64,000 nucleotides of DNA from Phenylobacterium sp. (GTDB lineage Bacteria > Pseudomonadota > Alphaproteobacteria > Caulobacterales > Caulobacteraceae), in NCBI RefSeq assembly GCF_004299445.1, contig NZ_SCTC01000022.1, forward strand, positions 1 through 64,000, read 5' to 3'. A model generated the notes under the pieces. The model was not told the origin of the DNA. It ran no database searches and saw nothing but the letters and a program-made list of their open reading frames with translations. Shown piece by piece: positions 1-8,539 of this stretch. Positions within the stretch are counted from its first letter, which is position 1. The number at the start of each line of letters is the position of its first letter. A program made the translations under genes and the position numbers.

Positions 1-653
1 GCCGCTCGGAACCCGTAGCCCTCAACAAGCTCGGGCATGTTCAGGACCACCACTGCGCATGCACGGTGGTTCTTGGCTACAAACTGGCGGATCGCGGCAT
101 AGTTCGACGCCTCGAATCGACGTGCCAACTTGACGGGCGTCCATATCTCGAAAGGCTCGTCGTTCGCCATCTCACTAAATGCGTCGAGTTGAAAGAGCAC
201 CTCCGAGGCAAAGACGTTGGCTTCGCGATCGAATAGTTCGGCTGTTGAGCCGTCCAACGCCTTTTCACAGTCTTCCACCACGGCGTAGATCGGCCGCTGC
301 CATGGCAGGAAGCCATGGCCCGCCTCATGAAGGCGCACGAATCGCTTCTTCACGGCGATCAGAGTCTGGTTGAGGAAGACTAGGCCTTCGGAGGCATGGA
401 AAAGGCCCAGAACCTTTCCAGCCGCTCGCTTTATTGCTTCGCCGGCCGCGCCGGCCTTGGCCCTAAGTCTGGCGATGAAACTTGGGTTGAGAACGTCTTC
501 TCTGACCTCCTCAACCTTGGCCGCAGCCATGATCAGGTGAATCGGGGTTGGAAAAACACCGAGCGCGCCTGCTTCACGCAGCGCGCGCTCGGCTTCCTTA
601 CGAACACGTGCCAATTGGCCGGGCGTCAAACTCGAATCGTCCGGCTTTGGCAT
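1..653 (-). CDS. ImmA/IrrE-family metallopeptidase, C-terminus cut by window edge
   Basis: The frame reads from an ATG at 653 leftward and is still open at base 1, so the C-terminus is missing. The visible 217 residues carry a zinc-protease motif HEAGH (H109, E110, H113) and a downstream acidic candidate ligand in FDREANVFASEVL (E144), the arrangement of ImmA/IrrE (COG2856) peptidases. Such enzymes typically cleave a partner XRE repressor after a stress signal. The gene starts 3 bases after the stop of the XRE gene, so the two are one transcript, which supports that pairing. It is predicted to be cytoplasmic. The family call rests on motif and context; the substrate is inferred. Confidence 0.82.
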   Translation of the reverse strand, partial: MPKPDDSSLTPGQLARVRKEAERALREAGALGVFPTPIHLIMAAAKVEEVREDVLNPSFIARLRAKAGAAGEAIKRAAGKVLGLFHASEGLVFLNQTLIAVKKRFVRLHEAGHGFLPWQRPIYAVVEDCEKALDGSTAELFDREANVFASEVLFQLDAFSEMANDEPFEIWTPVKLARRFEASNYAAIRQFVAKNHRACAVVVLNMPELVEGYGFRA

Positions 654-656
654 TCG

Positions 657-1037
657 CTACCTCCGTTTAGAGCGGATGTAAGTCAGGTAATCGAGGAGTT
701 CGGCCTCTTCCTCAGCGGAGAGATTATCGATTGCGAAAGTCGCGGCTCTGCCGTGCTTCTCGCCCTCAGTCCTCGGTGAGTTGGGCACGATGTATCCTGC
801 ATGTTCCATCAGAGCGTCATACGCAACCCCGAGAGACGTCGACAAAGCATAAAGTATGTGTGGAGAAGGCTTGGTGATCTTCCCGCTTTCGAGCTGACTC
901 AAGTAAGCGTTAGACACTTCTCTTCCAGTGGCTTCTTCGACCTCTCGCAGAGACATCCTTACGTCCTGACGCGCCTTCTTTAGGAATTGTCCTAGTCTGC
1001 TCGGTGGGGCTGGTTCGTTGTTTTTCCCATCGGTCAT
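657..1037 (-). CDS. XRE-family helix-turn-helix transcriptional regulator
   Basis: 126 residues. Residues about 16-78 form a Cro/C1-type HTH (RLGQFLKKARQ, LREVEEATG, VSNAYLSQLESGKITKPSPHIL). The C-terminal tail is acidic (SAEEEAELLDYL), a likely contact region for the adjacent protease. The ATG at 1037 is chosen because AGGAGG lies just upstream of it; an earlier in-frame start at 1067 has no such site. The gene is co-transcribed with the ImmA-like peptidase and divergent from the ubiquitin-like operon, so it probably represses both directions through half-sites at 1098-1141. Phage and ICE repressor/ImmA pairs share this layout. The target genes are an inference. Confidence 0.88.
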   Translation of the reverse strand: MTDGKNNEPAPPSRLGQFLKKARQDVRMSLREVEEATGREVSNAYLSQLESGKITKPSPHILYALSTSLGVAYDALMEHAGYIVPNSPRTEGEKHGRAATFAIDNLSAEEEAELLDYLTYIRSKRR

Positions 1038-1097
1038 CAATCCTCCTTGCTGGACCGCCAGACGCAAAATCCGACGGTCGCTTCTATGGACCGAACT

Positions 1098-1145
1098 GCT
1101 AAGTCTGTCAAGCGCGCTAAATATTGCTTGACGAACTTAGCGCGC
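1098..1145. promoter_or_regulatory. Divergent promoter with three XRE-type half-sites
   Basis: Three related half-sites are visible: GCTAAGT at 1098-1104, GCTAAAT at 1116-1122 and ACTTAGC (inverted) at 1135-1141, spaced 18-19 bp, about two helical turns. The last two sit inside a perfect 9-bp inverted repeat, GCGCGCTAA (1112-1120) and TTAGCGCGC (1137-1145). A TTGACG -35-like hexamer (1128-1133) overlaps. This is the expected operator of the adjacent repressor; binding is inferred. Confidence 0.5.
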
Positions 1146-1194
1146 GTTCTCACGTTAGCGATACCGGCGATTGGCCGGCGACGTGGAGATCACG

Positions 1195-2304
1195 ATGAGC
1201 AATCTTCCCGAGGCCGCGCTCTCTCGCGGTGATGCGCGGCACAACATCGAAGTGGCTGACGAGACGCTGACCTTCCGGTCGCTGACGATCTCGGATCTGA
1301 CGCCCACCGGCGCGCAGATAGCCTCCGTGGCAGGCGTCAAACCGAACCAGGAGGCGACCGTCCTGCAGTTCCTCCCCAACGGTGAGCTGGAAGACATCCG
1401 GCCCGACGAGGTGGCGGATCTCCGCCAGAGCGATGGGCGGTTTGTAGTGGTCGCGAGCGACCGCATCTATCGCCTCCTCATCGACGGAGAGCGTTTCGAT
1501 TGGCCGTGCCGCGTCATATCGGGCGCGGTAATCCGCAAGCTGGGCCGGATCGCCCCCGACTTGGCGGTGTTCCTCGAGCGGACGGATGAGCCTGACAGGC
1601 AGATCGAGCCGTATGAGCTGGTCGATCTCGACGCGCCTGGCGTGGAGTCGTTCGCCGGCCGCAAGCCGACCTGGAAGCTGAACGTGCAGGGAGTTGTCCT
1701 GGACGTACCGGTGCCGACGATCGTCGTCCGGGACGCATTGGTCCAAGCGGGTTTCAATCCCGATCAGGGCTGGCACATCTTCCTAAAGGTGGCCGGTCAA
1801 CCCAAGCGCGCCGTCGAACTGGGGGATACGGTCGACCTTAGGACGCCGGGCATCGAGAAGCTGCGGCTGACCCCGAAAGAGGTGAACAACGGCGAGATCC
1901 CACCCGCGCCTCGCCGCGAGTTTGATCTCTTGGAGGCTGACGACCGGCATCTGGCGGCTTTGGCTTTGCGCTGGGAGACCCTGATCCAGGGTGAACGGCG
2001 CTGGCTGCTGGTCCACGACTACCCGGTGCCGGCCGGCTACACGGTGAAGCGCATTCTGCTGAGCCTTGAGGTTCCGCCGACCTATCCTGGCGCGCAGATC
2101 TATGGGTTCTACGCATTTCCGCCGCTGGCGCTGGCGGCAGGCGGCCAAATCCCCAGCACCCAGATGCGCGGCGTTATCGATGGCCAAGAGTTCCATGGCT
2201 GGTCCCGCAACCGCGGCCTAACGCCCTGGAATGCGTCGCTCGACAATGTCGCCACCCAGCTTGCCCTGGTGGACGCCGCCCTTGCCAAGGAGGTGGGGGA
2301 ATGA
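1195..2304 (+). CDS. Three tandem ubiquitin-like domains fused to a cysteine-less E2-like domain
   Basis: 369 residues from the ATG at 1195, which has GGAG six bases upstream; a TTG at 1171 is a weaker alternative. Three beta-grasp (multiubiquitin) units follow one another at about 17-86, 92-156 and 159-228, two ending in GVESF/GIEKL-type segments. Residues about 242-369 match the prokaryotic E2 family E fold (WLLVHDYPVPAGY, PPTYPGAQIYGFYAFPPL, FHGWSRNRGLTPWN). The only cysteine in the protein is C105, in the second ubiquitin-like unit, so the E2 domain cannot form a thioester. There is no terminal Gly-Gly, and each unit is embedded in the chain, so release by proteolysis would be needed before conjugation. 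It is the first gene of a three-gene overlapping operon. Confidence 0.82.
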   Translation: MSNLPEAALSRGDARHNIEVADETLTFRSLTISDLTPTGAQIASVAGVKPNQEATVLQFLPNGELEDIRPDEVADLRQSDGRFVVVASDRIYRLLIDGERFDWPCRVISGAVIRKLGRIAPDLAVFLERTDEPDRQIEPYELVDLDAPGVESFAGRKPTWKLNVQGVVLDVPVPTIVVRDALVQAGFNPDQGWHIFLKVAGQPKRAVELGDTVDLRTPGIEKLRLTPKEVNNGEIPPAPRREFDLLEADDRHLAALALRWETLIQGERRWLLVHDYPVPAGYTVKRILLSLEVPPTYPGAQIYGFYAFPPLALAAGGQIPSTQMRGVIDGQEFHGWSRNRGLTPWNASLDNVATQLALVDAALAKEVGE

Positions 2305-3701
2305 TCCCGGAGACCACCCTGGCCTTCGCCGGCGTCCTGCACGAGGACACGCGCCAGCATCTGTTCCCGCCGGACGGCTTGGAAGCAGCCGCGATCCTCC
2401 TGTGCGCCCGCACGCCTGAACCCCGGCGCCGGCTCCTGGTTCGAGAGGCGCTATTCATTCCGCACAGCGCCTGCGGCCGGCGGGAGCGAGATGCCATCAC
2501 CTGGCCGGGCGCCTACCTGGAGGATGCACTGGATCGGGCAGAGCAGGACAGCTTGGCTCTTGTGCTGATCCACTCGCACCCAGGTGGTCTGTTCGCCTTC
2601 TCCGATGCGGACGACGCCAGCGACCGCCAGGTCATGCCGAGCTTGCTCCATGCGCACGGTGACATGCATGGATCAGCGATCATGACCGCGGATGGCGCAG
2701 TCCGCGCGCGCCTCTACGACCATGCCATTTCGCCCCGGCCCATCGACCTAGTCACTGTAGCCGGCCACGACCTGCTCTACTGGTGGGAGGATGGCGCACG
2801 GTTGACGGGTCCATCGCGGAGGCCCGTCGCCTTTACCGGAGCCATGAGCGGCGAGCTTGGTCGGCTGCGGGCCGCCGTGATCGGCGTGTCTGGAACTGGC
2901 TCGATCACTGCTGAGCAGCTTGCGCGCCTTGGATTCGGCGGGGTCACGCTGATTGATTTTGACCGCTTAGAGTTGAAGAACCTCAATCGGATCCTGAATT
3001 CTCGCATTCGCGACGCCCAGGACGGGCGGCTTAAGGTGGAGATGTTCGCGGAGGCGGTCGCGGCCTATCGGGCGGGGGATGTCGCCCAGCCAATCCCGGC
3101 TTCCGTATTGACCCGCGAGGCCATCCTGGCGGCCAGCCAGGCTGACGTGATCTTCTGCTGCGTTGATACTCTAGAAGCACGCCAGATCGCAGACCTCCTG
3201 GCCAGCGCTTTCGCGATCCCGTTGTTCGACGTAGGCGTGGTGATCCCGGTCCGCCAAGCTGGCGACGGTGTCGCCATCGCGGATGTGTGCGGTCGTGTTG
3301 ACTACGTCCAGCCCGGGCGCTCCACGCTGCTGGATCGCGGGGTCTACAGCCCGGAGAGCCTGAGAGCCGAGTACCTGCGACGACACGCTCCTGAGGCACA
3401 TCAGCAAGAGTTGGAAGCCGGCTACATCAAAGGTTTGGTCGAGGAAGCCCCCGCGGTCATCACCCTTAACATGCGAGCCGCGTCAGCTTGCGTGAACGAG
3501 TTCATCGCGCGCGCCTATCCCTTCCGGCTGGAGCCCAACCGCCTCTACGCTAGGACGGCGTTTAGCCTCGCCGCCTGCGAAGAGGAGTTCACCGCCGAAG
3601 ATGACTTTCCTGTCTCCGAGAACCCGGTACTAGGCCGCGGAGCACGGGAGCCCCTACTAGGCCTGCCCTCCCTCGCGCCGCGTCGCCGAGGTGGGCGGTG
3701 A
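2301..3701 (+). CDS. JAB/MPN metallopeptidase fused to an E1-like (ThiF) activating domain
   Basis: 466 residues; ATG overlaps the previous stop by 4 bases with AAGGAGG upstream. The N-terminal half is a JAB deubiquitinase-like domain with a full JAMM signature: E49, H91, H93, S101, D104 (HSHPGG then SDAD). The C-terminal half, from about 188, is a ThiF/E1 adenylation domain: nucleotide loop IGVSGTG (194-200), LIDFD (217-221), NLNR (227-230) and CCVDTLEAR (286-294). Where E1-like proteins usually carry a catalytic Cys after a PG turn, this one reads PGRSTLL with Ser at 341. Predicted roles are adenylating the ubiquitin-like C-terminus and trimming or removing it. The translational coupling argues for a complex with its neighbours. 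Confidence 0.88.
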   Translation: MIPETTLAFAGVLHEDTRQHLFPPDGLEAAAILLCARTPEPRRRLLVREALFIPHSACGRRERDAITWPGAYLEDALDRAEQDSLALVLIHSHPGGLFAFSDADDASDRQVMPSLLHAHGDMHGSAIMTADGAVRARLYDHAISPRPIDLVTVAGHDLLYWWEDGARLTGPSRRPVAFTGAMSGELGRLRAAVIGVSGTGSITAEQLARLGFGGVTLIDFDRLELKNLNRILNSRIRDAQDGRLKVEMFAEAVAAYRAGDVAQPIPASVLTREAILAASQADVIFCCVDTLEARQIADLLASAFAIPLFDVGVVIPVRQAGDGVAIADVCGRVDYVQPGRSTLLDRGVYSPESLRAEYLRRHAPEAHQQELEAGYIKGLVEEAPAVITLNMRAASACVNEFIARAYPFRLEPNRLYARTAFSLAACEEEFTAEDDFPVSENPVLGRGAREPLLGLPSLAPRRRGGR

Positions 3702-4030
3702 ACCTTGGTCGCTGGTGGCGCCGCAGCTGGGCGCGCATCGCGCCCTCGCGGCGGCTTCGCCTGATCGAAGGGGACAGTCTGCCCAGTACTCTCCCACGCC
3801 GTGATCTGGTCCTGGCTCGCGAGGACGGCGAAGACTGGTGCGTAGGGTTCCGGTGCCCGTGCGGCTGTCGCCGCCCCATCGAACTCCTCGTCATCCCAGA
3901 GGCCAAGCCGCGATGGGATGTCGAAGTGGACGAAGATGGCGCCGCGAGCCTCACGCCGTCGGTCTGGCTCAAGGTGGGATGCAGGTCTCATTTCTGGTTG
4001 AAACGAGGCCGCGTCGTTTGGTGCGAATAG
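3698..4030 (+). CDS. DUF6527-family protein of the ubiquitin-like operon
   Basis: 110 residues from a GTG overlapping the previous stop by 4 bases. It has the compact DUF6527 pattern: FRCPCGC (C53, C55, C57), a central RWDVEVDEDGAASLTPSVW segment with S88, then GCRSHFWLKRGRVVW (C95, H98). The clustered Cys and His suggest a metal or nucleophile site. Proteins of this type recur beside bacterial ubiquitin-like, E1 and E2 genes; a protease or accessory role has been proposed, as far as I recall, and I cannot check it here. The N-terminus is basic. Coupling to the E1 gene supports a shared function. Family call is fairly firm, biochemical role is not. Confidence 0.72.
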   Translation: MNLGRWWRRSWARIAPSRRLRLIEGDSLPSTLPRRDLVLAREDGEDWCVGFRCPCGCRRPIELLVIPEAKPRWDVEVDEDGAASLTPSVWLKVGCRSHFWLKRGRVVWCE

Positions 4031-4166
4031 TGGTTGTCGGTCTTATGCTTCTGCGCAACCGCTACCCTGTGGGCTCGGGGACGACCTCTCCCCTCCACAT
4101 GCCGAGCCGTGGAAGTGCTGACCGCGCCGGACGGCAGCGTCTGCGCGCTGAGGTGCCGCCAGCGCG

Positions 4167-4838
4167 TCAGGCCGTCGCCCTCACCCGCCGGCGCAGGCTC
4201 GCACCCGCCAGGCCGAAGCCGGCGATCATCAGGGCCCAGGTGGTGGGCTCCGGGACGGCGCCGGGAAGCGTGGAGTCGAACCGGAAGACGATGTTCTGGA
4301 CGCCGCCGTTGTAGGCGTCGGGGCCGAAGATCAGCACGATCGGCTGGTTGTATGCGGCCGTCACGTTGAAGTTGACCGTCGTCAGGGCCGTCGGATTGGT
4401 GGTCACCGACCCGGTGGAAATCGTGCCCGTCGTCGAAAAGAGCTCCCAGCCGATGTCGACGGCCGCGTTGGGGTAGCCGCCGAAGTCCGCCGAGACGAGC
4501 GTGATGTAGCCGCCCCCCAGGTTGTTGTTGAACAGGGCCACCGCGCCCCGGGTGGTCCCGCTCGAATCCTCGACATAGGCCACGGAGCTGCCGCTGAAGT
4601 CGCCAGGCCAGTAGTTCAGCCCCCCGTCGACGGGAACGTAGCCGTCGGCGAGCCGCAGGTTCTGCACCGCGACGTCGGGGACGCTGCCGAACAGTTCGGA
4701 GATCTGGTCGCCATCGTTGACGCACCCGCCGGCGCAGGCGCCGGGGCCGTAGACGATGGTGTGGGTCGCGGCGAGGGCGGACGCGCCCGACGCAGACAAG
4801 ACGAGCGCCAGCACCGCGCCCAACCCTGCAAACTTCAT
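4167..4838 (-). CDS. Exported PEPxxWA-CTERM protein
   Basis: 223 residues. An N-terminal signal peptide (MKFAGLGAVLALVLSASGASALA) is followed by a secreted domain of unknown fold and the C-terminal sorting tag VPEPTTWALMIAGFGLAG with a basic tail RRRVRATA. This is the alphaproteobacterial PEPxxWA variant recognised by an exosortase, so the protein is expected to be cleaved and anchored at the cell surface or in the matrix. The ATG at 4838 is preferred over an upstream GTG at 4856 because of the G-run just before it. It is divergent from the large regulator at 5093 and shares a promoter region containing the CGATG repeat element. Function beyond surface sorting is unknown. Confidence 0.8.
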   Translation of the reverse strand: MKFAGLGAVLALVLSASGASALAATHTIVYGPGACAGGCVNDGDQISELFGSVPDVAVQNLRLADGYVPVDGGLNYWPGDFSGSSVAYVEDSSGTTRGAVALFNNNLGGGYITLVSADFGGYPNAAVDIGWELFSTTGTISTGSVTTNPTALTTVNFNVTAAYNQPIVLIFGPDAYNGGVQNIVFRFDSTLPGAVPEPTTWALMIAGFGLAGASLRRRVRATA

Positions 4839-4925
4839 CACAAACCCCCAAACCACAGACTCTGTCCCAGGCGGGACACTGGTGCGGACCTTGCCGCGGG
4901 ACGTCGGGCCGGTTCTGCGACGCCG

Positions 4926-5092: not shown

Positions 5093-8000
5093 TTGACGGC
5101 GACAGGGGCGGGCCAACTGGCGGACGAGCCGGCGTTCGCGCTGGGCGGGATGACCGTGCGGCCTGCGACGCGCGAGGTCGCGGGCGACGGCGGCGTCGAG
5201 CTGCTGGAGCCCCGCGTCATGCAGGTGCTGGTCACCCTGGCGCGCCGGCGCGGCGAGGTGGTGTCGCGGGGCGATCTGATCGCGAGCTGCTGGGCGGGGG
5301 TCGTGGTCGGCGACGACGCCATCAACCGGTGCATCCAGGCGCTGCGGCGGCTGGGCCAGATGCGTGGCGCGTTTTCCATCCTGACCGTTCGGGGGGTGGG
5401 CTTTCGGCTGGACGAGGACGCTTCGGCTGACCCTGGGCCACCGGTCGAGTCGGTCCCGCCGACGTCGGCCGCGTCAGCCGCGAGGCCGGCGAGCGACGAG
5501 CGGCGCCACGTGACGGTGCTGTCCTGCGGACTGGCGCGCGAACCGGGCGCCGCCTTCGGGCCTGAAGCCTGGTACGCGTCAAACCGCGCGTGGCGGCGCG
5601 AGGCGTCGCAGGTCGCGCGGGGGTTCGGCGCGCACGTCGAACGGGCCCGCGGCGAGCGGCTGGTCGCCTACTTCGGCTACCCGGACGGCCAGGAGGACGC
5701 AGCCGAGCGGGCCCTGCGCGCCGGGCTCGACATCGCGCGGATGAAGCCGCACGGCGCCTCAGTGCAGGTCGGGATCCATGCCGGCATCGTCGTCGTCGGC
5801 CGTGACGAGGCCGGCGAGACCGAGATGTTCGGCGACGCCCCCGACGTGGCGGCGCGGGCGCAGGACAGCGCCCCGCCCGGCGCCGTGATCATGACCGGGG
5901 CCGTCCACGACATGGTGTCCCGCATCGTCGCGGCGCAGCCGTCCGGGGCGTTGCCGCCCGACGGGACCGGCGCGGCCGCCCGGCTCTATCGCGCGGTCGG
6001 CGTCCCGGTGGCGACCGGCCGCGGCTTCGGGCCTCGCGAACTCAGCCCCTTCGTCGGGCGAGACGACCAGATGCGGATGCTGCTGGGGAGTTGGGAGCGG
6101 GTCCAGGACGGCGAAGGCCAGTTCGTGGTGGCGGTCGGCGAGCCGGGCATCGGCAAGACGCGCCTGGTCCAGGAGTTCATGGCGCGCGTGCAGGATGGCG
6201 CGCACCTGAGCATCGAGTGCGCGGGCGCTCCGCTCTTCGCCAATACGCCCTTCCACGCGGTGGCCGAGGTGGTGCGGCAGGGGCTGGGCTGGCGGGACGC
6301 CGATACCGCCGCCGAGCGCCTCGCGACGCTCGAGGCGGCCATGGCGCGGGCGGGCCTGGAGCCCGCCGGCGCGGTTCCGCTGGTCGCGGACCTTCTGGGA
6401 TTGCCGACCGACCAGGCCTATCCGCCCCTGACGCTGGCGCCGGACGAGCGGCGCACGCGGCTGCTCGCGGCGCTGGCGGCCTGGGTGTTCGCCTTGTCTC
6501 AGGAGCGGCCCCTGATGCTGGTGGTGGAGGATCTGCACTGGGTCGATCCGTCGTCGGCCGAGCTGATCAAGATGCTCGCCGATCAGGGCGCCACGTCGCC
6601 GATGATGCTGCTCTGCACGGCGCGGCCGGAGTTCCAGGCGCCGTGGCCGGCGCGTTCGCATCACACCCGGATCACGCTCGCGGGCCTGGCTTCACGGCCG
6701 ATGCGCGCCCTGGTGGACGGCCTGGTGGCGCGCGCCGGGATGGACGACGAGCTGGTCGACGCGGTGGTCCGGCGCGCCGATGGCGTGCCGCTGTTCGCCG
6801 AGGAGCTGACGCGCCTGATCCTCGACGGCGAGGGCAACCGCCCGCCCGGTCCTGTGGAGGCCGGCTTCATCCCCGCCACCCTTCTGGATTCGCTGGCCGC
6901 GCGGCTGGACCGGCTGGGCCACGGCAAGGCGGTCGCCCAGCTGGGGTCCGTGCTGGGCCGGCAGTTCAACCATGGCGTCTTGGCCGCGGTCTCGTCGCTT
7001 TCGGAGCACGACCTGCAGGCGGGGCTGGCGCAGCTTGCCGATGCCGAGCTGATCTATGTGCGGGGGATTGCGCCCGAGGCGACCTATCAGTTCAAGCACG
7101 CCCTGATCCAGGACGCGGCCCATGCGGGGCTGCTGGAGGCTGACCGCCAGGCCTTGCATGCCGCCGCAGCTCGGACCCTGACGACGCGGTTCGCCGACCT
7201 CGCCGAGGCGCGGCCCGAGGTCATCGCCCGGCATTGGACGGAAGCCGGCGAGGCCGCCGAAGCGATCACCGCCTGGACCCGGGCGGCCGTGACGGCCGAA
7301 GCCCGCCACGCCTTCGTCGAAGCCGAGGACGACTACCGCCGCGCGCTGGCCCTGCTGAGCACCACGCCGGAGACGCCCGCCCGCGATCAGCACGAGCTCG
7401 ACCTGGGGCTCGCCCTCGTCAAGGTGACGATGACCACCCAGGGCTACCAGTCTCCGGAGACGGTGGCGTTGCGCGCACGCAATCACGCGCTGGCCGAGCG
7501 CGGCGGTTTCCTGGGCGCCAACACCGGCATGCGCATGATGGCGTTCTCGCTGCACCTGATGTCCGCCGACTGGACGACGGTGGCGGCCTACGCCAGGCAG
7601 GCCCGGGCCTTCGCCGACAGCCTCGGCCCGGAGACGGACCGAAAGTGGTTCCGGTTCGCCCACGCCATGGCGCCCTTCACCGCGTTCAACCATGCCTACT
7701 ACACGGGGGATCTGCGAACCGCCGAGGCGCAATACCGCCAGTGGCAGACCTATCAGGCCGAGGGCGACTACGACCAGCGCATCACGACCACGATAGGCTT
7801 CTGCAACGGCGCCCTGCTGGCCTGGTGCCTGGGACAGCCGGCCGTGGCGCGCGAGCGGATGGCCATGGCCCGGGGATGGGCCGCACAGGCCGACAACGCC
7901 TATGAGGTGATGTTCGCCGAGGCCCTGGACGCGCTTCTGCAGGTGAACCTCCGCGACGCCGCCCGCGCAGAGGCCATCGCTGCCGAAGCGGTGCGGTTTT

Positions 8001-8539
8001 GCGAGGAGAAGGGGTTTCCCCAGATCGCCGGTTGGGCGCGAGCCGTGCTGGGTTGGGCCAGCGCCCAACGCGGCGCGTCGCGTGAAGGCGCAGGGCTGAT
8101 CCAGCAGGCCATCGGCGACCTCGAAGGGCTGCAGACGCGGGTCTCCGCGCCCCTCTTCCTGGCATACCTCGCCGAAGCCCAGGCCCTGGACGGCGACCCG
8201 GAGGCGGCTTTCGCGACCCTCGACAAGGCGCTCGCAGCCAGCCCTGACGAACGCGTCTATCGGCCCTACGTCCTCATCTGCCGCGGTGAGATCAACCTGC
8301 GGCTCCAACGCCACGCCGAAGCGGAAGGGGATTTTCGCGCCGCGATCGATGAGGCCGACGTCATGGGCGCCGCCGCCTATGCTCTGCGCGCCGCCACCGG
8401 TCTGGCGCGGTCGATGGCCGGACGCGGCAGCGTGGAGGCCGCGCGAGCCCTGCTCACCTCGCGGCTCGATGTGATGGCCTCGGGCGATGAGACCCCCGAC
8501 GTTCAGGCGGCGAGGGCGCTGCTTCGGGAATTGGCTTAA
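5093..8539 (+). CDS. Winged-helix / degenerate cyclase / AAA ATPase / TPR signalling regulator
   Basis: 1148 residues with four regions. Residues about 13-105 are an OmpR/CadC-type winged helix (LEPRVMQVLVTLARRRGEVVSRGDL, then ILTVRGVGFRL). About 135-300 resemble a class III cyclase, but the metal-binding Asp position reads VLSCGLA, so catalysis is unlikely. About 318-600 are an AAA/NTPase module with Walker A GEPGIGKT and Walker B LMLVVEDLHWVD. The rest is helical TPR-like sequence. Such STAND-type regulators bind a ligand or partner through the TPR region and use ATP to switch. The start is uncertain: the only early start codon is a TTG at 5093 with a weak ribosome site. Flanking repeat elements suggest it regulates itself, the PEP-CTERM gene and the transporter downstream. 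Confidence 0.82.
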   Translation: MTATGAGQLADEPAFALGGMTVRPATREVAGDGGVELLEPRVMQVLVTLARRRGEVVSRGDLIASCWAGVVVGDDAINRCIQALRRLGQMRGAFSILTVRGVGFRLDEDASADPGPPVESVPPTSAASAARPASDERRHVTVLSCGLAREPGAAFGPEAWYASNRAWRREASQVARGFGAHVERARGERLVAYFGYPDGQEDAAERALRAGLDIARMKPHGASVQVGIHAGIVVVGRDEAGETEMFGDAPDVAARAQDSAPPGAVIMTGAVHDMVSRIVAAQPSGALPPDGTGAAARLYRAVGVPVATGRGFGPRELSPFVGRDDQMRMLLGSWERVQDGEGQFVVAVGEPGIGKTRLVQEFMARVQDGAHLSIECAGAPLFANTPFHAVAEVVRQGLGWRDADTAAERLATLEAAMARAGLEPAGAVPLVADLLGLPTDQAYPPLTLAPDERRTRLLAALAAWVFALSQERPLMLVVEDLHWVDPSSAELIKMLADQGATSPMMLLCTARPEFQAPWPARSHHTRITLAGLASRPMRALVDGLVARAGMDDELVDAVVRRADGVPLFAEELTRLILDGEGNRPPGPVEAGFIPATLLDSLAARLDRLGHGKAVAQLGSVLGRQFNHGVLAAVSSLSEHDLQAGLAQLADAELIYVRGIAPEATYQFKHALIQDAAHAGLLEADRQALHAAAARTLTTRFADLAEARPEVIARHWTEAGEAAEAITAWTRAAVTAEARHAFVEAEDDYRRALALLSTTPETPARDQHELDLGLALVKVTMTTQGYQSPETVALRARNHALAERGGFLGANTGMRMMAFSLHLMSADWTTVAAYARQARAFADSLGPETDRKWFRFAHAMAPFTAFNHAYYTGDLRTAEAQYRQWQTYQAEGDYDQRITTTIGFCNGALLAWCLGQPAVARERMAMARGWAAQADNAYEVMFAEALDALLQVNLRDAARAEAIAAEAVRFCEEKGFPQIAGWARAVLGWASAQRGASREGAGLIQQAIGDLEGLQTRVSAPLFLAYLAEAQALDGDPEAAFATLDKALAASPDERVYRPYVLICRGEINLRLQRHAEAEGDFRAAIDEADVMGAAAYALRAATGLARSMAGRGSVEAARALLTSRLDVMASGDETPDVQAARALLRELA

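What the first reader, a model, noticed from the sequence alone, without database searches (positions are those of the whole stretch)
657..4030. XRE/ImmA switch facing a ubiquitin-like conjugation operon
The repressor-protease pair is divergent from a three-gene overlapping operon coding for ubiquitin-like/E2, JAB/E1 and DUF6527. Repressor/ImmA pairs normally switch on mobile or defence genes after stress. This layout suggests that conjugation is kept silent and released by repressor cleavage. Ubiquitin-like operons with JAB, E1 and E2 in bacteria are described and some act in antiphage immunity, but the coupling to an ImmA switch is the part that looks new here.
Basis: partly seen in the sequence, partly recalled or inferred. 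Interest (0 to 1): 0.82.

Follow-up and report, generated by a model that had tools for sequence, protein, structure and literature searches.

The report
CapH/CapP-controlled bacterial ubiquitin-like (Bub) operon
This is a bacterial ubiquitin-like tagging operon kept off by a repressor and its partner protease, a pairing already reported; the new clues are the repressor's likely DNA site and phage contigs that carry the repressor gene without an intact protease gene.

Summary
Window 1195-4030 is a Bub operon: fused BubA-BubB, fused JAB-E1 (BubCD, E=1e-149 to solved Citrobacter BubCD) and DUF6527/BubE. It is divergent from an XRE repressor (657-1037) and an M78/ImmA peptidase (1-653, cut by the contig end) that match CapH and CapP.

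Added here: (1) An exact palindrome with 16-bp arms at 1098-1141, the only such site found in this genome. Its motif scores above background in 24 of 24 loci with this CapH type and in 0 of 72 others, and it blindly predicted one capH/capP pair. (2) An M78 peptidase lies in the regulator region of 71 of 94 Bub loci sampled; regulators changed at least 26 times on the BubCD tree. (3) Two architectures I did not find in print: sigma-like protein + P125 + ImmA (11 loci) and M78-UvrD helicase proteins (17 loci). (4) Eleven viral contigs carry CapH 71-84% identical to this one, with capP absent or broken wherever readable.

Locus: new member of a known kind. Phage capH makes Bub's antiphage role testable.

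The parts
1..653 (-). capP-like M78/ImmA metallopeptidase; 3' part missing because the contig starts here (217 codons seen; the P. aquaticum relative has 307 aa)
   Evidence: PF06114 5.8e-8, PADLOC capP 2.7e-15; HExxH at residue 109; contig edge; 81% identical to the P. aquaticum protein
657..1037 (-). capH-like XRE repressor, 126 aa
   Evidence: HTH_3 2.4e-10, PADLOC capH 2.4e-7; AAGGAGG ribosome site before the ATG, read in the sequence
1098..1141 (.). predicted CapH operator: GCTAAGT-NN-GTCAAGC-N12-GCTTGAC-NN-ACTTAGC, overlapping -35-like TTGACA/TTGACG boxes on both strands; a further TTAGC lies 18 bp on (1155-1159)
   Evidence: only match in window, 0 expected; only site for a shorter form of the pattern in the genome; footprint and leave-one-out score in 24 of 24 loci of this CapH type
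1195..2304 (+). bubAB: ubiquitin-like repeats fused to an E2-like domain that has no cysteine
   Evidence: PF14452 3e-31 (3 stretches), PF14462 1.1e-25; PDB 9d59, 9eav; cysteine count
2301..3701 (+). bubCD: JAB/JAMM peptidase fused to ThiF/E1
   Evidence: PF14464 6.1e-9, PF00899 1.9e-20; PDB 9ea4 1.4e-149; H91/H93/S101/D104 and C287 invariant in 14 homologues
3698..4030 (+). bubE: DUF6527 protein, GTG start
   Evidence: PF20137 5.7e-22; a matching ORF on the same strand in 96 of 97 loci, position not checked

Best explanation
A Bub (bacterial ubiquitination-like) operon kept silent by CapH bound to the palindrome at 1098-1141, which covers both divergent promoters. DNA damage or phage replication produces single-stranded DNA; this activates CapP, CapP cleaves CapH, and bubAB-bubCD-bubE and capHP are derepressed together. 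BubCD and BubB then attach BubA units to proteins, and the JAB domain and BubE process or remove them. Shown here by sequence: gene identities, layout, active-site residues, the palindrome and its tie to this CapH type. Inferred from published relatives: ssDNA sensing, cleavage, derepression, conjugation. The role given to BubE is my inference.
For: Domain and PDB matches. HExxH in 70 of 70 Bub loci with an M78 protein. Leave-one-out operator score 12.3-56.2 bits in 24 of 24 window-type capH loci against 3.8 or less in 72 of 72 other loci; best score in shuffled sequence 8.4. One stub locus, G164, scored 44.8 with no regulator in view; the fetched flank held capH (58% identical) and capP (59%) there. 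The pattern has one site in the 4.9-Mb genome, hence probably a local switch. Published: CapH+CapP and Bub association, and CapP activation by ssDNA (PMC13373217 passages; PMC10904395 passages).
Against: No binding, cleavage or expression data. CapP is truncated by the contig end, so its C-terminal part is unseen. The window's -10 box (CACGTT at 1151-1156) is poor and the promoter scan found none. PADLOC capH/capP scores of the window's proteins are modest. One relative with the same capH and operator (L041) has no detectable capP. The weakest class member, L024, scored only 12.3. Bub has not been shown to be antiphage (PMC13373217).
Confidence: 0.82

Rival explanations
1. The XRE/ImmA pair is the immunity switch of an integrative element or prophage (ImmR/ImmA-like) and the Bub operon is only cargo beside it.
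For: The first 2 kb have lower GC (0.599) than every other 2-kb bin of the window (0.656-0.724). The operon is sporadic: 1 of 35 congeners has a close copy, and 102 plasmid records hold BubCD relatives. XRE/ImmA pairs are typical of mobile elements (recalled).
Against: The same CapH type and operator sit at the Bub promoter in 24 of 24 loci from many families, and unrelated XRE/ImmA types occupy the same slot. None of the three right-hand neighbours annotated is a phage or conjugation gene. The left flank is missing.
Confidence: 0.08
2. The switch is as described, but Bub is a general DNA-damage response (protein tagging and clean-up) rather than antiphage immunity.
For: PMC13373217 says the regulators on Bub (CapW, CapH+CapP, CapK+CapS) respond to DNA damage, that Bub protection against phage has not been demonstrated, and that Bub may be a more global stress response.
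Against: Sporadic, plasmid-borne distribution, neighbours such as type I restriction and PD-lambda-2-like genes in some loci, and capH on phage contigs fit defence better.
Confidence: 0.35
3. The XRE protein only autoregulates capHP, and the operon has its own constitutive promoter.
For: The palindrome is symmetric about the two -35-like boxes, so its effect on each side is not known.
Against: In relatives the bub-side -35 and -10 (such as TTGACA-N17-CATATT in L013) lie inside the conserved block, with a TTAGC repeat over the -10.
Confidence: 0.07

Closest known systems
Bub operon (bacterial ubiquitination-like; Gong et al 2025, Ye et al 2026, seen only as references in PMC13373217; not held)
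   Same: Multi-Ubl BubA, E2-like BubB, JAB-E1 BubCD, DUF6527 BubE; closest solved relatives include Citrobacter BubCD/BubB/BubA.
   Different: The E2-like part here has no cysteine, whereas the Enterobacter-, Leclercia- and Citrobacter-type relatives aligned (L015, L083, L095) have one near the C-terminus. bubA and bubB are one gene here, as in most relatives (an ORF of 330 aa or more in 89 of 97 loci).
CapH+CapP regulator of CBASS and other immune operons (Lau et al 2022, recalled and cited in PMC13373217; not held)
   Same: XRE repressor plus M78 peptidase at the promoter of an immune-type operon.
   Different: Divergent from a Bub operon here, with its own palindrome; CapP is cut by the contig end.
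PprI-DdrO of Deinococcus (PMC10904395, passages)
   Same: ssDNA-activated M78 peptidase cleaving an XRE repressor.
   Different: Promoters of DNA-damage-response genes there; a single site found here.
CapK+CapS and CapW on Bub operons (PMC13373217)
   Same: Fill the same regulator slot; CapK/S-like pairs in 14 and WYL proteins in 4 of my 94 readable loci.
   Different: Kinase- or WYL-based rather than proteolytic.
Phage homologues of a host regulator that repress CRISPR-Cas (AmrZ; recalled, paper not seen; one search was a listing only)
   Same: Logic of the proposed phage-borne CapH: a phage copy of the host's repressor silencing defence.
   Different: Here the target would be a Bub operon and no function has been tested.

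Membership tests
Bub operon | Multi-ubiquitin-like BubA | tested here: met
   PF14452 3e-31, PDB 9d59 2.2e-80
Bub operon | E2-like BubB of the Prok-E2_E type | tested here: met
   PF14462 1.1e-25; Citrobacter BubB 2.1e-28
Bub operon | JAB-E1 fusion BubCD with JAMM and E1 residues | tested here: met
   PDB 9ea4 1.4e-149; H91, H93, S101, D104, C287 invariant in 14 sequences
Bub operon | BubE/DUF6527 (that this is BubE is recalled) | tested here: met
   PF20137 5.7e-22
Bub operon | Conjugates BubA to targets | not testable with these tools
   needs biochemistry
CapH+CapP | XRE-type repressor beside the operon promoter | tested here: met
CapH+CapP | M78 peptidase with HExxH | tested here: met
CapH+CapP | Full-length CapP | tested here: inconclusive
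   gene cut at contig base 1
CapH+CapP | Operator over the operon promoter | tested here: met
   in silico only; the promoter scan itself found no consensus promoter
CapH+CapP | ssDNA-activated cleavage of CapH | not testable with these tools
   needs biochemistry
ImmR/ImmA switch of a mobile element | Integration, excision or transfer genes beside the pair | tested here: inconclusive
   none among the three right-hand neighbours annotated; no tRNA gene in the window; left flank missing
CBASS | CD-NTase gene in the operon | tested here: not met
   none among the five genes or the three right-hand neighbours annotated (PEP-CTERM, AAA_16/TPR and MFS proteins)

The most novel reading that the evidence does not exclude
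Phages have captured the repressor of this defence-type operon as a counter-defence. Tailed-phage contigs carry capH without an intact capP and, in the stretches read, without Bub genes, so that infection would supply CapH and hold the host's Bub operon off at the same operator. If so, Bub operons are antiphage, and the CapH-operator pair is the point of attack. A second, independent novel reading: in 11 and 17 related Bub loci the M78 peptidase is paired with sigma-like proteins, so cleavage of an anti-sigma factor, rather than of a repressor, may switch Bub on.
Probability: 0.3. Interest if true: 0.8.

Novelty: new member of a known kind. Interest (0 to 1): 0.45.

Why it matters
Whether Bub pathways are antiphage is left open in the paper that reports CapK/CapS on Bub (PMC13373217). 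The locus gives a precise candidate operator for one CapH type, so induction and repression can be tested directly. Phages that carry this repressor without its protease would be evidence from the phage side that silencing Bub pays, and that can be tested with a reporter. The survey suggests that M78 peptidases came to Bub promoters repeatedly, in several unrelated architectures.

Tried and rejected
Rejected: the claim that the ImmA coupling is new. Rejected: that the 1140-aa 'ImmA' hits were HMM drift; Pfam shows an N-terminal M78 domain before a UvrD helicase in the two members scanned, and a PD-(D/E)XK domain in the complete one. Led nowhere: BubCD in the phage collection (0 records); capH in the phage collection (0); capP in viral contigs (0 relatives by patterns from one sequence); CapS in viral contigs (1 weak partial match); the donor of the phage capH in 398 genomes of the order (apart from this genome at 71% DNA identity, five matches of under 40 bases). 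The P226 fold gave only weak XRE-like matches (best E 1.1). One viral contig with an operator-like match (L116) has no capH match and is probably chance.

Rows dropped before counts: L098 (same contig as L008), L009 and L010 (BubCD only 32-33% identical) from the class table; L027, L069, L072 had no readable regulator region; L027 and L072 were also left out of the operator scan, which kept L009, L010 and L069. The genome scan kept 80 of 276 relatives and I fetched 14 of 102 plasmid records, so the shares describe a sample biased towards close relatives. Classes rest on clusters and on lists that I set by hand in the script (for example L019 as WYL from its annotation). BubCD rows were cut to their last 475 residues for the tree.

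Weak points: the operator score was trained on the class that it separates (leave-one-out, but relatives stay in; L043 was left out of training because the script did not line up its site, and still scored 33.5). Only G164 was a blind test. Combinations of left and right junctions in the viral contigs may be assembly chimeras (two contigs overlap by 127 nt). The window genome's M78 density stands in for other genomes in the chance estimate.

Not in print: for sigma-linked M78 regulators and phage capH I ran the searches over an open-licence library only, and saw listings, not papers. The data sets of PMC13373217 could not be read, so its 219 operons may include some of my classes.
Full report
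WHAT IS IN THE WINDOW. The window is the first 64 kb of a 107,868-bp contig of a 4.9-Mb genome. At 657-1037 (minus) lies a 126-aa XRE protein, and from 653 leftwards an M78/ImmA peptidase cut by the contig start. PADLOC calls them capH (2.4e-7) and capP (2.7e-15). The visible peptidase has HEAGH at residue 109. Divergently, 1195-2304, 2301-3701 and 3698-4030 overlap by 4 nt and encode fused BubA-BubB, fused JAB-E1 and DUF6527. Among the best solved relatives are the Citrobacter BubCD/BubB/BubA structures. The E2-like part contains no cysteine, while L015, L083 and L095 have one near the C-terminus (alignment). I recall that the Bub mechanism is described as diverged from thioester E2 chemistry, but the paper was not held.

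DISTRIBUTION. A close BubCD occurs in 1 of 35 congeners (74% identity; two more have 32-33% relatives), in 1 genome besides this one among 385 sampled from the class at E<=1e-40, in 102 of 72,556 plasmid records at E<=1e-20, in 0 of 50,697 phage records at E<=1e-10, in 276 stretches of the genome-contig collection (best 80 kept) and in 1 viral contig. The first 2 kb have GC 0.599 against 0.656-0.724 in the other bins. This is an accessory, mobile kind of locus.

THE COUPLING IS ALREADY REPORTED. PMC13373217 (EMBO J 2026; passages read) states that 219 of 544 Bub operons are associated with CapW or CapH+CapP, adds CapK+CapS on others, and says that Bub has not been demonstrated to protect against phage. 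It cites Lau et al 2022 for CapP activation by ssDNA and cleavage of CapH (not held). PMC10904395 (passages) describes ssDNA activation for the related PprI-DdrO pair.

THE OPERATOR. Upstream regions of 24 loci whose XRE is at least 52% identical to this one share, with variants, GCTAAGT-NN-GTCAAGC-N12..15-GCTTGAC-NN-ACTTAGC, mostly with a further TTAGC 18 bp on (the script lined up 23 of 24, L043 being degenerate). In the window it is exact at 1098-1141, with 0 expected by chance; a shorter form of the pattern matches only this site in the genome. A leave-one-out matrix gave 12.3-56.2 bits in 24 of 24 such loci and at most 3.8 bits in 72 of 72 loci with other or no recognised regulators; the best score in shuffled sequence was 8.4. 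So the site goes with this CapH type, not with Bub promoters in general. Its arms contain -35-like boxes on both strands, which fits repression of capHP and bub together. A search of 385 class genomes found the pattern only in this genome, but the pattern was strict: it also missed G164.

REGULATOR SURVEY. Of 97 Bub loci classified, 94 have a readable regulator region: window-type XRE+ImmA 25, P215+XRE+ImmA 3, other XRE+ImmA 7, sigma-like+P125+ImmA 11, M78-UvrD 17, CapK/CapS-like 14, WYL 4, HigB-like + C-terminal M78 protein 7 (the larger protein of the one scanned, L050, matches PADLOC PD-Lambda-2_B at 6e-154), ImmA with other partner 2, XRE only 3, none 1. M78 proteins are present in 70 loci, all 70 with HExxH, plus G164: 71 of 94. 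XRE+M78: 34 of 94. L041 has this capH and operator but no detectable capP. On a BubCD tree the classes need at least 26 changes (shuffled mean 61.1), so regulators are swapped but also inherited. Given 5 M78 matches in this genome, chance proximity within 4 kb would be about 0.4%.

TWO ARCHITECTURES THAT I DID NOT FIND IN PRINT. (a) In 11 loci the ImmA (PADLOC capP 2.3e-61 in L056, the one scanned) is encoded with a roughly 125-aa protein (9 of the 11 by cluster) and a roughly 200-aa protein (8 of the 11 by cluster). The predicted fold of the 200-aa protein (mean pLDDT 68.7) has mostly sigma factors among its best PDB matches (best E 0.017, none under 0.001); Pfam gave no match for four members (L048, L056, L061, L066) and only Sigma70_r2 at 0.022 for a fifth, L067. 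(b) In 17 loci a protein of about 1140 aa, by cluster, has in the two members scanned an M78 domain followed by a UvrD helicase, and in the complete one (L029) a PD-(D/E)XK nuclease. It mostly adjoins a roughly 200-aa protein with at best XRE-like fold matches. In 13 of 17 loci a further roughly 250-aa family lies upstream; Pfam finds sigma-70 region 4 in it above the curated cut-off in L087 (7.3e-8), below the cut-off in L029 and L100 and in L070's counterpart, and barely in L049 (0.82). Cleavage of an anti-sigma factor by the M78 domain is a plausible reading and is not shown. In L079, L085 and L099 a WYL protein adjoins an RNase H/AAA protein of about 1115 aa (L079 scanned).

PHAGE COPIES OF CAPH. 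A scan of viral contigs with this CapH gave 12 loci on 11 contigs, each contig with a different IMG/VR sample number, at 71-84% identity. Ten of 12 have the complete 126-aa ORF; L129 ends inside it, and L127 lacks the first 9 residues and reads in from other sequence. The helix-turn-helix stretch NAYLSQLESGK is identical to the window's. The nearest host protein among those compared is that of P. aquaticum (85%), then this window (79%). No Bub gene was found in the 12 fetched stretches (not all contigs were fetched whole). In the 11 loci that extend past capH, capP is absent or broken; a remnant of its first 45-56 residues is left in 3. The core cassette (59 nt before to 403 nt after the start codon) differs by 0-1 nt among the ten complete copies, while backbones outside it are often only 75-90% identical, though some contigs are near-copies of each other. 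I count four left contexts and five right boundaries. Genes annotated on L117, L118, L119, L122 and L128 and on the overlapping contig L115 are phage: DNA polymerase, primase, helicase, terminase, portal, and, on L115, endolysin and head closure. The nearest named phage records are from spring water, a gammaproteobacterial phage and a Rhodoferax phage. Copies of capH with capP broken fit selection for the repressor. They could also be a recent passenger, and assembly chimeras around the repeat cannot be excluded: two contigs overlap by exactly 127 nt there, and one contig holds two copies (L121, L128). The one viral BubCD locus (L106) has the P125/ImmA type of regulator region.

VERDICT. The locus is a Bub operon under probable CapH/CapP control: a new member of a known kind, with a well-defined candidate operator. 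What would surprise a specialist is outside the window: phage-borne capH, and the sigma- and helicase-linked M78 regulators.

Noticed in passing
L118-L129 (11 IMG/VR contigs); L117/L115: Phage contigs carrying a capH 71-84% identical to the window's, with capP broken or absent wherever readable and no Bub genes in the fetched stretches; near-identical 462-nt cassette in diverged phage backbones with several different boundaries.
   Followed up: partly
L029:1360-4782, and 16 other loci (L014, L026, L028, L030, L032-L034, L049, L070, L078, L087, L088, L090, L092, L100, L103): M78 peptidase-UvrD helicase fusion (with PD-(D/E)XK nuclease in the complete member scanned) at Bub promoters, mostly with a roughly 200-aa partner and a sigma-region-4-like protein upstream.
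   Followed up: partly
L056:2339-4075 and ten other loci (L012, L048, L059, L061, L063, L066, L067, L073, L089, L106): ImmA encoded mostly with a 125-aa protein and an ECF-sigma-like protein in place of CapH, divergent from Bub.
   Followed up: partly
L050, L057, L062, L064, L065 (about 800-4680): PD-Lambda-2_B-like protein with HigB-like gene and HsdM/HsdS genes directly upstream of the Bub operon.
   Followed up: no
L018, L020, L022: Four-gene divergent regulator: CopG-type protein, 215-aa protein (once annotated GNAT), XRE and ImmA.
   Followed up: no
L016:6795-7403, L017:6788-7348: Genes annotated as Clp protease proteolytic subunit follow bubE in two Rhizobium plasmids.
   Followed up: no
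L041:4336-4734: Bradyrhizobium Bub locus with this capH and operator but no detectable capP.
   Followed up: partly
window 5093-8539: 1148-aa regulator with winged-helix, AAA_16 and weak TPR matches next to a PEP-CTERM protein (4167-4856, minus).
   Followed up: no
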